In this document: positions 1,062 through 45,523 of the stretch, piece by piece
Layout of the letters: every line of letters starts with the position of its first letter
Numbering within the stretch: the first letter of the stretch is position 1
Position numbers and translations under genes: made by a program
From: a virus
Direction: 5' to 3' (one strand)
DNA: 64,000 nucleotides
Virus record (IMG/VR): IMGVR_UViG_3300020202_000001
Span: 1 to 64,000 of that record
The notes under the pieces: model-generated
Database searches by the model: none
Told to the model about the DNA's origin: nothing
Seen by the model: the letters and a program-made list of their open reading frames with translations, nothing else

Positions 1062-1090
1062 TTGACACGTCCCCCCATCGGGGGTAACTT
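1062..1090 (+). promoter_or_regulatory. Sigma70-like promoter with C5/G5 dyad spacer
   Basis: A perfect TTGACA (1062-1067), a 17-base spacer and TAACTT (1085-1090). The spacer carries a run of C, then AT, then CGGGGG, the dyad seen in other promoters of this window. It lies just after the glycosyltransferase stop and would drive the non-coding region that follows. Confidence 0.7.
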
Positions 1091-1096
1091 TCCTGA

Positions 1097-1356
1097 CGCT
1101 GGACGGGCATGGACGTGGAACGGGGCCAGGGATGGCCACTGGGGACAAGGATGTCACCACCGCGTCCGGCCGGTTCGGTGGGCGTTTTGACGGACGCCCT
1201 AAGAGCCGCAGAGGAGATGAGGTGTGCCGACGCAGCTCGACCCTGCGACGGGAGCCTCAACAAGAAACGGGGGCGGCCAGTGACTCCTTGGCCGCCCCTA
1301 CATTGAAATCTTCCCTCCACAGCCCGACCGGCTCACCCACGCGGTCGGGCTTCTTT
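1097..1356 (+). ncRNA. Candidate GGA-rich structured RNA (CsrB/RsmZ-like?)
   Basis: The 368 bases between genes (1056-1423) contain a promoter, no convincing ORF and a terminator. The predicted transcript has nine GGA triplets between 1101 and 1253 and several hairpins: GGCCA-GGGA-TGGCC (1124-1137), GAC-AAGGAT-GTC (1144-1155), GGGCGT/ACGCCC (1180-1199), CGCAG/CTGCG (1231-1247) and a 10-bp stem GGGGCGGCCA/TGGCCGCCCC (1270-1298). GGA in hairpin loops and linkers is the signature of CsrA-titrating RNAs, and a tandem CsrA is encoded at 11.2-11.7 kb. That function is inferred; it could instead be the long 5' leader of the 1424 gene with an attenuator. Confidence 0.5.
1321..1356 (+). terminator. 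Intrinsic terminator
   Basis: Nine-base-pair stem AGCCCGACC/GGTCGGGCT (1321-1329 with 1343-1351) followed by TTCTTT. Confidence 0.75.
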
Positions 1357-1408
1357 GTAACTGGAGGTTCTAACCCGCCCCGGCCCAGCCGGCACGGGGC
1401 ATACTCGT

Positions 1409-1423: not shown

Positions 1424-3085
1424 ATGCCTGACCTTCGCCCGCCGCCCGGTTCCGACCTGTCCAAGCTCCGCAACCTCAAGGACACGCGCGTCGTCCTGCA
1501 GCGCGGGGCGACCTACCAGGCCTCCAGCGACTGGGGGCTCAAACGCAACGTCGAGGTCGTGGCCGAGGGGACCGGCGGCCCACGCCCGCGGGTCGACTTC
1601 CTCGACAGCGGTGCCGGCGTCCACCTCCTCGGCGCGCAGAACATTGCCGTCTCCGACGTCGCCCTGATCTGCGTCCACCCCCAGCCGTCCTCGGGCGGCG
1701 TCCGCTCGGTCAGCTCGAAGGACGTCCGCCTCACCCGCGTCGAGGTCGCCGGCTTCCGCAACGGCATGACCAGCGAGGGCAAGCCCGGCGAGCGCAGCTC
1801 GAACTTCACGGTCGAGCAGTGCTACGTCCACAACAACTTCAACGCCAAGCCGCCTACCGGCAGCCCGCACGGCGGCGGCCACAGCCAGGGCATCTTCACG
1901 AGCTACACGGACGGCCTCCGGCTCCTCCGCACGGTCTGGGACACCAACGGGTGGACGCCGGGCAAGGGGATCGCGACGCAGTTCAACCACAACGCCTACC
2001 TGAACGCCTCGTGCGGACCGGCCGAGGTGGTCGGCAACCTGTTCTACAACGGGGCGGCGACCGGCCTGCAGCACCGGTGCGGCGGGCCGAACTCGTACAA
2101 CCTGTTCCTCAACAACCCGATCGGCCTGACGTACGGCCTGGTCAACGGCGGCGGCCCGCTGTGCCAGGGCGGCGTCAGCGGCGACGTGCACCACCTCGTG
2201 TTCGTCGGCGGCCGGGACATCAACGGCAGCCCGCGCGGCAACGCGATGTCGTTCGCCAACTGCAAGCGGGTCCGCGTACGCGACGTGCTGATCGCCCACG
2301 CCCCGCAGGACAAGTTCCAGGCCGTTGCCCTCGAACGGTGCCGGATGGGTGCCGACAGCGAGTACCTGAACAAGCCGGGCGGCATCGACATCGGGATCGC
2401 CGACCTGGAGTTCGACCGGGTCTACGTCTGGGACTGGCCCAAGGGCGAGTGGATTCAGTCGATCGGCGGCCAGGACGTGAAGCGGCTGGTCAAGCCGCAG
2501 AGCTGGGCTCCGCCGAAGCGGCCCGACCTCCGCGAGTGGATCGAGGAGCGGGGCGTGCTCGCCAACGCCCGGGCGAGCTACGCGACGTTCGACGCCAAGC
2601 CGCTGATCGACCAGATGTTCGCCCTCGCCGGCGCTGGCCAGGCCCCGACGCCCACGCCGACCCCGCCGCCCCCGCCCACCCCGCAGCCGACCCCGCCGAG
2701 CGAGCCGCGGCTCGACCTGATCGCGGTCAAGCTCGACGGCAAGCCGGTCGGCCGGCTGCAGGGCTCGTCGCTGCACTCCCCGGTCGCGGTCAAGGCCGTG
2801 CCCGTGCTGCCGGGCGGCCGGGGCATCGACCGCGTGCACTTCAGCCTCGACAAGCTCGGGGACGAGAAGCCGCCGCTGCTGGAGAAGGAGGAGCGGACCC
2901 CGCCCTACGCCTTCCCCGGCGACACGGGCGGCGACCGGTTCACCAAGTTCCCGTGGACCAGCGGGGCGTACCGCATGGTCGCCCGGGGGTACGCCGGGAC
3001 CAAGGAGGTCGTCAAGCAGGTGGCGGAGTTCAGCGTCTGCACCGACGAGGAGGTCGCGGCCGCGCTGGCGGCGAAGGACGACTAG
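1424..3085 (+). CDS. Parallel beta-helix protein, candidate tail spike or surface depolymerase
   Basis: This 553-residue protein has an N-terminal two thirds (about 20-340) made of repeating short strands with Asn, Gly, Val and Asp at regular spacing, the look of a right-handed parallel beta-helix of the pectate-lyase/tailspike class. A Pro/Thr linker follows (about 406-427), then a ~120-residue C-terminal domain rich in beta strand that may be Ig-like. Such helices bind or cleave polysaccharide; no catalytic residue set can be assigned here. There is no signal peptide, which fits a virion protein better than a secreted enzyme. The gene is preceded by a terminator and by an SD in a small hairpin. 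Tail fibre or spike is the most likely role, by inference. Confidence 0.6.
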   Translation: MPDLRPPPGSDLSKLRNLKDTRVVLQRGATYQASSDWGLKRNVEVVAEGTGGPRPRVDFLDSGAGVHLLGAQNIAVSDVALICVHPQPSSGGVRSVSSKDVRLTRVEVAGFRNGMTSEGKPGERSSNFTVEQCYVHNNFNAKPPTGSPHGGGHSQGIFTSYTDGLRLLRTVWDTNGWTPGKGIATQFNHNAYLNASCGPAEVVGNLFYNGAATGLQHRCGGPNSYNLFLNNPIGLTYGLVNGGGPLCQGGVSGDVHHLVFVGGRDINGSPRGNAMSFANCKRVRVRDVLIAHAPQDKFQAVALERCRMGADSEYLNKPGGIDIGIADLEFDRVYVWDWPKGEWIQSIGGQDVKRLVKPQSWAPPKRPDLREWIEERGVLANARASYATFDAKPLIDQMFALAGAGQAPTPTPTPPPPPTPQPTPPSEPRLDLIAVKLDGKPVGRLQGSSLHSPVAVKAVPVLPGGRGIDRVHFSLDKLGDEKPPLLEKEERTPPYAFPGDTGGDRFTKFPWTSGAYRMVARGYAGTKEVVKQVAEFSVCTDEEVAAALAAKDD

Positions 3086-3153: not shown

Positions 3154-3169
3154 CGTGAAAGGAGTCACG
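3154..3169 (+). promoter_or_regulatory. SD hairpin CGTGA-AAGGAG-TCACG
   Basis: Perfect 5-bp stem presenting the Shine-Dalgarno as an AAGGAG hexaloop, 4 bases before ATG 3174. The loop fits the CsrA/RsmE ANGGAN rule, although the closing pair is A-T rather than C-G. Confidence 0.75.
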
Positions 3170-3173
3170 CACC

Positions 3174-3581
3174 ATGCGGACTTTCCGTTCCCGGTTCTCG
3201 GCCCTCGTGGCCGTCGCGTTCCTGTCCTCGCTCCTGCTCGGCCTGACCGGCTGCGGCGGGAAGAACATCAACACCGCCAACACCGGCGGCACGCTGACCG
3301 GCGTCGTCGACCGGCACGACAAGTACGTGCAGGCCGACCCCAACGTCGACCAGGCCGAGGCCCTCGCCGACTCGGCGGTGCTCAGGCAGGCGTGGCAGGC
3401 GGAAAGCGTACCGGCCAACGCGATCGAGGCCCCCTTAAACCGCGTCGCCGACCGGCACGACGGGTACGTCCAGTCGGACGGGACCCTGCCGCCCTACAAG
3501 CAACGCGCGAACCTACGCGACACCGCGATCCTGCGGGAGCTGCTGAAGGTCGGGAGGGCGACACCCGCCACCAACCCCTAA
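3174..3581 (+). CDS. Predicted lipoprotein with an internal tandem repeat
   Basis: The 135-residue product has a basic N-terminus, a hydrophobic core and a lipobox (LTGC, Cys27), so it should be lipid-modified and anchored in the envelope. The mature part contains two related units beginning VVDRHDKYVQAD (about residue 43) and VADRHDGYVQSD (about residue 91), each followed by a helical stretch ending LRQA or LREL, so it arose by internal duplication. Phage lipoproteins act in lysis (o-spanin), superinfection exclusion or receptor masking; nothing here chooses between them, and the size is large for an o-spanin. Its ribosome site sits in a CsrA-type hairpin. Confidence 0.7.
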   Translation: MRTFRSRFSALVAVAFLSSLLLGLTGCGGKNINTANTGGTLTGVVDRHDKYVQADPNVDQAEALADSAVLRQAWQAESVPANAIEAPLNRVADRHDGYVQSDGTLPPYKQRANLRDTAILRELLKVGRATPATNP

Positions 3582-10690: not shown

Positions 10691-11241
10691 TCGAAGTGCT
10701 CGACGGCCCCGGCTACTGGGACAGGCAGGCGTACGCCCTCGGCAGGCTCAAGGCCGCCGAGGACGACACGCCGACGCCCTCCTACAGCATGTCCGGCCTC
10801 CTGTACGTCTCCGAGGCGTCGGGGCGGCCGTGGGCGTGCCTGTCCGTGCCGAACGCCCTGGTCCGTGGCATGTTCGACGCGCTGACCGAGCCGGGGATCG
10901 AGCTGCCGATGACGGACGGGAAGCTGAACGCGCACATCAGCGTCTTCCGGCCCGAAGAGATCGAGATGCTGGGCGGACCCGAGGCACTAAAAAACGACCG
11001 AGGGAAGCCCTTTCGGTACTCCCTCGGTCGTCTGGTCGAGTTGACCCCGGCGGCTTGGGCCGACATGGCCAAGTGCTGGGTGCTTAGGGTTCATTCGCCC
11101 GAGCTGCAACAGCTGCGTCGAAGCCATGGGCTCTCGGGGCTGCCGAAGGACGGCGAGTACGACTTCCACATCACGGTGGCTGTCAGGCGGAAGGGCGTAC
11201 TCGGTCGCAACGACACCGCCAAGGCTACGGACGCGGCTTAG
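10687..11241 (+). CDS. 2H phosphoesterase-like protein
   Basis: The 184-residue protein has two spaced histidine motifs, HISV (His83) and HITV (His161), each at the end of a beta strand. This is the H-x-[ST]-x pair of the 2H phosphoesterase superfamily (LigT/2',5'-RNA ligase and cyclic-nucleotide phosphodiesterases), and spacing and length suit the fold. Family members process RNA 2',3'-cyclic ends or degrade cyclic (oligo)nucleotides; the phage anti-CBASS protein Acb1 belongs here, so counter-defence is one option, but no Acb1-specific feature was verified. The 3' half overlaps an intrinsic terminator that works on the opposite strand for csrA. Confidence 0.6.
   Translation: MIEVLDGPGYWDRQAYALGRLKAAEDDTPTPSYSMSGLLYVSEASGRPWACLSVPNALVRGMFDALTEPGIELPMTDGKLNAHISVFRPEEIEMLGGPEALKNDRGKPFRYSLGRLVELTPAAWADMAKCWVLRVHSPELQQLRRSHGLSGLPKDGEYDFHITVAVRRKGVLGRNDTAKATDAA
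10989..11031 (-). terminator. Intrinsic terminator for the minus-strand csrA transcript, inside an opposing gene
   Basis: Perfect 12-bp inverted repeat ACGACCGAGGGA/TCCCTCGGTCGT (10994-11005 with 11020-11031). Read on the minus strand it is followed by six U. It lies within the + strand 2H phosphoesterase gene. Confidence 0.8.
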
Positions 11242-11729
11242 CAGGCCAGGCTAGGGGCGAAAGGGGACGGGGCCGCCTGACGGTTCTCGCGGCGGATCGC
11301 CTCGTACACTTCCTTACGGTGGACCGGGACGTCGGCCGGGGCCACGAACCCGAGCCGGACCTTGTCGCCGCGGATGTCGACGACCGTGTACTCGCAGGCC
11401 GTGGGTACCTTGTACCCCTCGCCCCTGCCGGCCGCGACCGCGTCGGCGAACTTCTGCAGCTCCGCGGGCTCCACCAGCACGATCGACTCGTCCCGCTGGC
11501 GGGAGAGGACGAGGTTGCCCCCGCCCTTGCGCTCGCGGACCGGCGGCGGCTGGTTGCCCCGGGCGATGTCCTGTAGGATCTGGACGTAGAGTTCCTTGCG
11601 GTAGACCTGGTACTGCTCCGGGGCCTTGATGCCGGTACGGACCTTGTCGCCGCGGATGTCAACGACGGTGACCTCGACGTCATCGCCGATGAGCGTGGAC
11701 TCGTCTCGTTGACGGGAGAGAACGAGCAT
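11238..11729 (-). CDS. csrA: Tandem CsrA (two fused CsrA/RsmA domains)
   Basis: CsrA is a homodimeric RNA-binding repressor of translation that binds GGA-hairpins at ribosome sites. Here one 163-residue chain holds two copies. Copy 1 (1-58) aligns with bacterial CsrA without gaps over its first 50 residues and keeps Leu4, Arg6 and Arg44 (VYRKELY), the RNA contacts. Copy 2 (72-150) keeps Leu75, Arg77 and Arg138 (VHRKEVY) but has a ~25-residue insertion after its first strand. A linker with VRERKGGG joins them. The chain may fold as a pseudo-dimer. It is the only minus-strand gene I support, with its own dyad promoter, an SD hairpin of the CsrA-target type (possible autoregulation) and a terminator placed inside the opposing gene. 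Confidence 0.9.
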   Translation of the reverse strand: MLVLSRQRDESTLIGDDVEVTVVDIRGDKVRTGIKAPEQYQVYRKELYVQILQDIARGNQPPPVRERKGGGNLVLSRQRDESIVLVEPAELQKFADAVAAGRGEGYKVPTACEYTVVDIRGDKVRLGFVAPADVPVHRKEVYEAIRRENRQAAPSPFAPSLAC

Positions 11730-11730
11730 G

Positions 11731-11746
11731 ATCGACTCCTTTCGAT
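11731..11746 (-). promoter_or_regulatory. SD hairpin of csrA, ATCGA-AAGGAG-TCGAT
   Basis: On the minus strand the csrA Shine-Dalgarno is an AAGGAG hexaloop on a perfect 5-bp stem, 1 base before its ATG: the same element as on many + strand genes, consistent with autorepression. Confidence 0.75.
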
Positions 11747-11789
11747 GCAGGAAGAATCGGGAAAATTGACTTCCTGACAGCCGGTAAAG

Positions 11790-11818
11790 ATACTACCCCC
11801 GAACGGGGGACGACACAA
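11790..11818 (-). promoter_or_regulatory. Sigma70-like csrA promoter with dyad spacer
   Basis: Minus strand TTGTGT (11818-11813), 17-base spacer carrying CCCCCGTTCGGGGG, TAGTAT (11795-11790). The symmetrical dyad is well placed to be an operator. Confidence 0.7.
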
Positions 11819-19956: not shown

Positions 19957-20319
19957 ATGGACGCGCGTACCGCATTTAAGCAGGGCTTCATCGCCCACTG
20001 CATCGAGCTGGGACACACCGACCCGGCCGCGATCCGCGACATCGTCAAGCAGGCGTTCGTCACGGAGGCGGTCAACAAGGTCACGAACTTCGCCACCGGG
20101 GCCGGCAAGCTCGGCCTCGGGCTCGCCCTCGCCGCCCCGCCGATCGTCGGCGGCGTCGCCGGCCACCTCGCGGCCAAGGCGACCGACGTCTCGGACTACG
20201 ACGTCGAGGAGGCCAAGAAGCAAGAGGTCATCGACGAGTACCGCCGCCAGGCCGAGCGCATGCGGCGGTCCGGGCTGCTGCGTCGGTACACGGCGGGCGG
20301 GCCGGGCAACCTGCTCTAA
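19957..20319 (+). CDS. Hypothetical protein with a Gly/Ala hydrophobic segment
   Basis: 120 residues: an amphipathic helical N-terminus, a Gly/Ala-rich hydrophobic stretch (about 45-70, LGLGLALAAPPIVGGVAGHL), and a charged coiled-coil C-terminus. ACAAGGAGG precedes the ATG. Confidence 0.6.
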   Translation: MDARTAFKQGFIAHCIELGHTDPAAIRDIVKQAFVTEAVNKVTNFATGAGKLGLGLALAAPPIVGGVAGHLAAKATDVSDYDVEEAKKQEVIDEYRRQAERMRRSGLLRRYTAGGPGNLL

Positions 20320-45401: not shown

Positions 45402-45504
45402 GCACCGGGAGCAGTCGCAGCAGTGTTCTTTTGAGTCACCGTAGGCCGGTTACGCCTCAGGGATGAGGCGAGGCCTGCGGGAGACGGATCGACAACCACG
45501 ACAA

Positions 45505-45520
45505 CGATCACGGAGGATCG
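45505..45520 (+). promoter_or_regulatory. SD hairpin of the major capsid gene, CGATC-ACGGAG-GATCG
   Basis: Perfect 5-bp stem, ACGGAG hexaloop closed by C-G, 3 bases before ATG 45524. Confidence 0.8.
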
Positions 45521-45523
45521 ACC

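What the first reader, a model, noticed from the sequence alone, without database searches (positions are those of the whole stretch)
1062..1356. Stand-alone GGA-rich RNA with its own promoter and terminator
A perfect TTGACA promoter and an intrinsic terminator bracket about 260 bases with no ORF, nine GGA triplets in the first ~155 bases and several stem-loops with GGA in loops (GGCCA-GGGA-TGGCC; GAC-AAGGAT-GTC). This is the layout of CsrB/RsmZ sponges. A phage carrying effector, targets and sponge would have a complete Csr circuit.
Basis: partly seen in the sequence, partly recalled or inferred. Interest (0 to 1): 0.8.

Follow-up and report, generated by a model that had tools for sequence, protein, structure and literature searches.

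The report
Candidate CsrA-binding small RNA in phage
A giant bacteriophage that carries its own copy of the RNA-binding regulator CsrA also carries a short, apparently non-coding transcription unit displaying two textbook CsrA-binding hairpins, so it may be a small decoy or partner RNA for that regulator, though with far fewer sites than a classic CsrB-type sponge and with no proof that it is made.

Summary
The anatomy holds up; the sponge reading is only partly supported. In a 224-kb jumbo-phage record, 1062-1358 holds the genome's only TTGACA-N17-TAnnnT promoter (null 0.08), about 260 nt without coding signal, and a strong intrinsic terminator. GGA triplets are not enriched (9 seen, 8.6 expected). 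The real signal is two CsrA-type hairpins 19 nt apart: GGCC-A-GGGA-U-GGCC, and GAC-A-AGGA-U-GUC, which holds the genome's only SELEX decamer ACARGGAUGU. They sit on a very stable 5' domain (z -5.6). The phage encodes a tandem two-domain CsrA 10 kb away, whose promoter shares the unusual spacer palindrome. 33 of 90 ANGGA Shine-Dalgarno sites sit in hairpins (9.4 expected), and the capsid-gene hairpin covaries across 59 distinct leaders, so a Csr-type target set is well supported. However, two sites is what ordinary target leaders here carry, Rfam sees no CsrB/RsmZ family, and no homologue of the RNA was found. In the one syntenic relative the same promoter position drives the leader of a lipoprotein gene, without a terminator. 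Most likely: a low-capacity CsrA-binding RNA, possibly a leader cut off when a new gene was inserted. Transcription, binding and titration are untested.

The parts
1062..1090 (+). Promoter: TTGACA (1062-1067), 17-nt spacer with palindrome CCCCC-ATC-GGGGG, TAACTT (1085-1090)
   Evidence: Only TTGACA-N16-18-TAnnnT in the genome; hairpin-spacer motif 8 observed vs 0.5 expected genome-wide, shared with the csrA promoter
1097..1358 (+). Candidate non-coding RNA, about 260 nt (start inferred about 7 nt after the -10)
   Evidence: Codon statistics non-coding in all frames; MFE z -4.7 for 1091-1360
1095..1201 (+). Very stable 5' domain: closing stem carrying both CsrA-type hairpins, plus the hairpin GGGCGTTTTGACGGACGCCC
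   Evidence: MFE -61.1 kcal/mol, z -5.6; structure
1124..1137 (+). CsrA-type hairpin 1: GGCC-A-GGGA-U-GGCC, GGA in tetraloop
   Evidence: GGA unpaired probability 1.0; A-NGGA-T tetraloop class enriched 9-fold in this genome
1144..1155 (+). CsrA-type hairpin 2: GAC-A-AGGA-U-GUC; holds the SELEX decamer ACAAGGAUGU at 1145-1154
   Evidence: Only ACARGGATGT on either strand of the 224-kb genome, null 0.17; unpaired probability 1.0
1269..1299 (+). Long G+C hairpin (GGGGCGGCCAG...TTGGCCGCCCC) without U tail
   Evidence: Fold -25.1 kcal/mol for 1263-1305
1321..1358 (+). Intrinsic terminator: 10-bp stem, 11-nt loop, tail TCTTTGT
11238..11729 (-). Phage csrA gene: 163-aa protein with two CsrA domains in tandem
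   Evidence: Two Pfam PF02599 stretches, 2.9e-35; leucine and arginine at the CsrA RNA-contact positions kept in both halves; a CsrA-like strand order in each half of a low-confidence model
11730..11818 (-). csrA promoter (TTGTGT-17-TAGTAT with CCCCC-GTT-CGGGGG spacer) and SD hairpin ATCGA-AAGGAG-TCGAT
   Evidence: the same SD hairpin in relatives G002 and G004
45459..45523 (+). Example target leader: major capsid gene with upstream hairpin CGCCTC-AGGGAT-GAGGCG and SD hairpin CGATC-ACGGAG-GATCG
   Evidence: SD hairpin covaries over 59 distinct relatives' leaders

Best explanation
The unit is transcribed from its own promoter into a terminated, non-coding RNA of about 260 nt whose folded 5' domain presents one pair of high-affinity CsrA hairpins 19 nt apart. 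That is enough to hold one CsrA dimer, or one molecule of the phage's own tandem CsrA. It most likely acts as a small titrating or buffering partner of the phage CsrA, relieving CsrA repression of phage mRNAs whose Shine-Dalgarno sites sit in ANGGA hairpins. Shown by sequence: the anatomy, lack of coding signal, the two hairpins, the csrA gene, the target-leader signal and the shared promoter architecture. Inferred: transcription, binding and titration.
For: Unique TTGACA-N17-TAnnnT promoter and the only SELEX decamer in the genome lie in the same 300 bp. Two CsrA tetraloop hairpins 19 nt apart, p 0.01 for two ANGGA hairpins; this is the closest A-NGGA-T tetraloop pair in the genome. Non-coding. 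5' domain z -5.6. Strong terminator. Tandem CsrA encoded. SD hairpins 33 of 90 vs 9.4 expected; A-NGGA-T hairpins 18 vs 2.1; covarying capsid SD hairpin. Same spacer-palindrome promoter type as csrA. SELEX consensus RUACARGGAUGU and antagonist sRNAs as described in PMC7652899.
Against: Only two exposed sites, no more than ordinary target leaders here, several of which carry two or three. Total GGA at chance. No homologue in 50 related records or in phage GenBank. In the syntenic relative G004 the promoter drives a lipoprotein leader with no terminator. Weak -10 (3 of 6). No expression data.
Confidence: 0.4

Rival explanations
1. Stranded leader: the unit is the former CsrA-bound 5' leader of the lipoprotein gene (3174-3581), cut off when the beta-helix gene 1424-3085 and a terminator were inserted; the RNA is a by-product with at most incidental CsrA binding.
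For: In G004 the order is glycosyltransferase, gap, lipoprotein; the gap opens with that record's only TTGACA-N17-TAnnnT promoter and holds GTTAAGGATGAC and further GGA hairpins. The beta-helix gene has no match in 50 related records. The G000 lipoprotein gene has its own SD hairpin CGTGA-AAGGAG-TCACG.
Against: The two hairpins are close to ideal and the 5' domain unusually stable, which is not what decay predicts. The two gaps do not align by BLAST. Only one relative shows this order.
Confidence: 0.27
2. CsrA-controlled attenuator: the unit is the long leader of the beta-helix gene 1424-3085, and CsrA bound to the two hairpins changes read-through of the terminator or the fate of the mRNA.
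For: Same strand, about 65 nt between terminator and gene, no convincing separate promoter in 1359-1423, and a weak ANGGAG stem at the gene's SD (AGC-AAGGAG-GCT).
Against: No antiterminator: the best upstream partner for the terminator's 5' arm is no better than for shuffled arms (p 0.21). The CsrA hairpins lie about 165 nt from the terminator and do not overlap it.
Confidence: 0.17
3. Non-CsrA structured RNA, or an untranscribed spacer carrying chance hairpins and the upstream operon's terminator.
For: GGA content is at chance, the -10 is weak, and no conservation was found.
Against: Joint occurrence of the genome's only such promoter and only SELEX decamer, plus two loop-exposed ANGGA hairpins in a phage rich in such sites.
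Confidence: 0.16

Closest known systems
CsrB/CsrC (E. coli) and RsmX/Y/Z (Pseudomonas) antagonist sRNAs
   Same: Non-coding, own promoter and intrinsic terminator, GGA motifs in hairpin loops, cognate CsrA encoded in the same genome.
   Different: CsrB has 22 GGA motifs and binds about 18 CsrA subunits (PMC7652899); here only two exposed sites, GGA total at chance, no Rfam match, no known regulator of its synthesis.
Low-site CsrA-binding sRNAs such as McaS
   Same: An sRNA proposed to antagonise CsrA (PMC7652899); that McaS has only about two sites is from my own knowledge.
   Different: McaS is a base-pairing sRNA of E. coli; here no base-pairing signal above the null was found.
CsrA-repressed mRNA leaders (E. 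coli glgC type, own knowledge)
   Same: Two ANGGA hairpins within bridging distance; in this phage the second often covers the SD.
   Different: Here no SD or gene follows the pair before a strong terminator.
Phage-borne csrA alleles (e.g. rsmM of P. aeruginosa phages)
   Same: CsrA carried by phages is known: 30 of 2517 phage genomes (PMC7366521).
   Different: Here the CsrA is a tandem two-domain protein, and the phage's own leaders carry the sites.

Membership tests
CsrB/RsmZ-type CsrA antagonist RNA | Stand-alone non-coding transcript with own promoter and terminator | tested here: met
   By sequence only, transcription not shown:
CsrB/RsmZ-type CsrA antagonist RNA | Many (about 5-22) GGA motifs in loops or single strands | tested here: not met
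   Only 2 of 9 GGA fully exposed; GGA count at chance
CsrB/RsmZ-type CsrA antagonist RNA | Match to a curated family (Rfam CsrB, CsrC, RsmY, PrrB/RsmZ) | tested here: not met
   No match at gathering; none of these among weak matches to 1040-1420
CsrB/RsmZ-type CsrA antagonist RNA | Binds CsrA and relieves its activity | not testable with these tools
   Needs binding and reporter assays
CsrA high-affinity site (SELEX RUACARGGAUGU hairpin) | ACA and GGA with GU, GGA in the loop of a short hairpin | tested here: met
   GGACAAGGAUGU at 1143-1154, 11 of 12 positions; GGA unpaired probability 1.0
CsrA protein family (PF02599) | CsrA domain above the curated cut-off, RNA-contact residues kept | tested here: met
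   Two stretches, 120 bits vs cut-off 27; both halves keep the N-terminal leucine and the arginine before helix 1
CsrA-repressed mRNA leader | Site overlaps or precedes the SD of a gene on the same transcript | tested here: not met
   Terminator at 1321-1358 intervenes before the gene at 1424; no coding signal inside; read-through not excluded

The most novel reading that the evidence does not exclude
A jumbo phage carries a complete Csr circuit of its own: a tandem CsrA, dozens of phage mRNAs with SD-covering CsrA hairpins including the capsid gene, and a dedicated small antagonist RNA that shares csrA's promoter type, together timing translation during infection.
Probability: 0.3. Interest if true: 0.8.

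Novelty: new variant of a known kind. Interest (0 to 1): 0.5.

Why it matters
Phage csrA genes are recorded but their use is unclear; the held papers showed no phage with its own Csr targets and antagonist RNA. If this RNA titrates the phage CsrA, the phage would run a self-contained translational control circuit over its structural genes. That is directly testable with purified protein and reporters, even without the host. Whatever the RNA does, the covarying capsid-leader hairpin and the excess of SD hairpins make the target side of such a circuit a solid lead.

Tried and rejected
BLAST of the RNA against GenBank phages and 50 related records: nothing real. Related loci by glycosyltransferase, beta-helix, lipoprotein and the gene next to csrA: only G004 is truly syntenic. 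Rfam: no match. Peptide reading of the 42-, 65- and 92-aa ORFs: rejected by codon use; the 92-aa one has no Pfam hit. Antisense action on SDs through the loop GUGACUCCUU (10-nt match to the lipoprotein SD): hardly more long matches than with the RNA read backwards. Antiterminator pairing: not above shuffles. A first gene caller chose antisense frames in this G+C-rich genome and was discarded (fixed). Comparing GGA tetraloop enrichment between csrA-plus and csrA-minus relatives on 20-kb flanks was uninformative (27 vs 16.9 and 10 vs 5.1 expected). Host could not be named: genome bins with the capsid gene were distant and of mixed phyla.

Full report
What is there. The window is the first 64 kb of a 224,418-base virus record, G+C 69%. 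A glycosyltransferase gene ends at 1055 (Pfam) and a beta-helix-like gene begins at 1424. Between them lie TTGACA-N17-TAACTT at 1062-1090, about 260 nt without coding signal, and a G+C-rich terminator at 1321-1358. The -35 is perfect and the -10 poor (3 of 6), but TTGACA-N16-18-TAnnnT occurs only here in the genome, against 0.08 expected.

Coding test. Three ORFs cross the region (42, 65 and 92 aa). Their GC3 is 0.64-0.68 and codon log-odds about -1, whereas neighbouring genes have GC3 0.87-0.98 and positive log-odds. The longest runs through the terminator and has no Pfam hit.

CsrA sites. GGA is not enriched: 9 against 8.6 in shuffles. Two ANGGA hairpins (0.15 expected, p 0.01) are the real signal, and theirs are the only GGAs fully exposed. 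The GGAs are 19 nt apart (1130 and 1149), within the range known (own knowledge) to allow one dimer to bridge. The second contains ACAAGGAUGU, the core of the SELEX consensus RUACARGGAUGU in which ACA and GGA are invariant (PMC7652899), and it is the only ACARGGATGT in the genome (null 0.17). The decamer is also common in the relatives compared with its reversed control, with the caveat that it can include SD-plus-start sequence. The 5' domain 1095-1201 folds at -61.1 kcal/mol, z -5.6.

The circuit around it. The phage encodes a 163-aa protein with two CsrA domains, close to solved CsrA/RsmA chains; relative G004 has the same tandem. CsrA is found above the cut-off in 30 of 50 capsid-related records, at a conserved place in six of the seven relatives read in full. 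A-NGGA-T tetraloop hairpins are 18 of 57 ANGGAT sites here against 3.6% for all loops, and enriched 3- to 4-fold in G001-G004 but little or not at all in G005, G007 and G009. Of 90 genes with an ANGGA SD, 33 have it in a hairpin, against 9.4 after shuffling the flanks; G001, G002, G003 and G004 show excesses too, and G005, G007 and G009 none. The capsid gene's SD hairpin NNNC-ANGGAG-GNNN is kept across 59 distinct leaders, with pairs 2-5 at 45, 47, 38 and 37 standard pairs against 34, 28, 26 and 26 under independence. Those leaders are related, so the counts are not independent events. The set also includes records where no csrA was seen, so a host CsrA may matter as well.

Promoter link. The spacer palindrome C-run/G-run next to TAnnnT occurs 8 times against 0.5 expected, 6 of them intergenic, including the csrA promoter. 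In relatives G002, G003 and G004 the csrA promoters keep a spacer palindrome with changed letters.

Comparison with relatives. No sequence homologue of the RNA was found. In G004, the one relative with the same gene order, the only TTGACA-N17-TAnnnT promoter of that record stands just after the glycosyltransferase gene, and the gap holds GTTAAGGATGAC and other GGA hairpins, but it runs without a terminator of comparable strength into the lipoprotein gene. In G004 the AAGGAT hairpin's GGA is only about half unpaired. The beta-helix gene of the window is missing from all 50 relatives. So the promoter position looks conserved while the stand-alone, terminated form is seen only here; this is why the stranded-leader rival stays strong.

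Verdict. The CsrB-like label fails the multi-site test and Rfam. 'Works like a small CsrA decoy' remains the best reading at about 0.4. Expression, CsrA binding and titration are all inferred.

Noticed in passing
11238-11729 (-): csrA is a tandem two-domain fusion here and in G004 but single-domain in most other relatives checked; it may form a one-chain pseudo-dimer.
   Followed up: partly
45402-45523 and L023-L102: The capsid gene's Shine-Dalgarno lies in a covarying ANGGAG hexaloop hairpin across the jumbo-phage clade (59 distinct leaders).
   Followed up: yes
1071, 5223, 11809(-), 47551 in the window; 152321 and 198074(-) in the record: Recurrent intergenic motif: C-run/G-run palindrome directly before TAnnnT, about 16 times more frequent than expected over the genome; perhaps a phage promoter class or operator.
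   Followed up: partly
11730-11745 (-): csrA's own SD sits in ATCGA-AAGGAG-TCGAT, also in G002 and G004, which suggests autoregulation.
   Followed up: partly
1269-1299: Loop GUGACUCCUU is complementary over 10 nt to the SD of the lipoprotein gene (3159-3168), but such matches are hardly above the null.
   Followed up: yes
L011:9469-9525 (record 93469-93525): A second close pair of A-NGGA-U tetraloop hairpins, 43 nt apart, the later one enclosing a likely start codon; outside the window.
   Followed up: no
3438-3526 (-) and 20067-20146 (-): Two predicted tRNA genes (Tyr, Lys); the first lies antisense within the lipoprotein gene and may be false.
   Followed up: no
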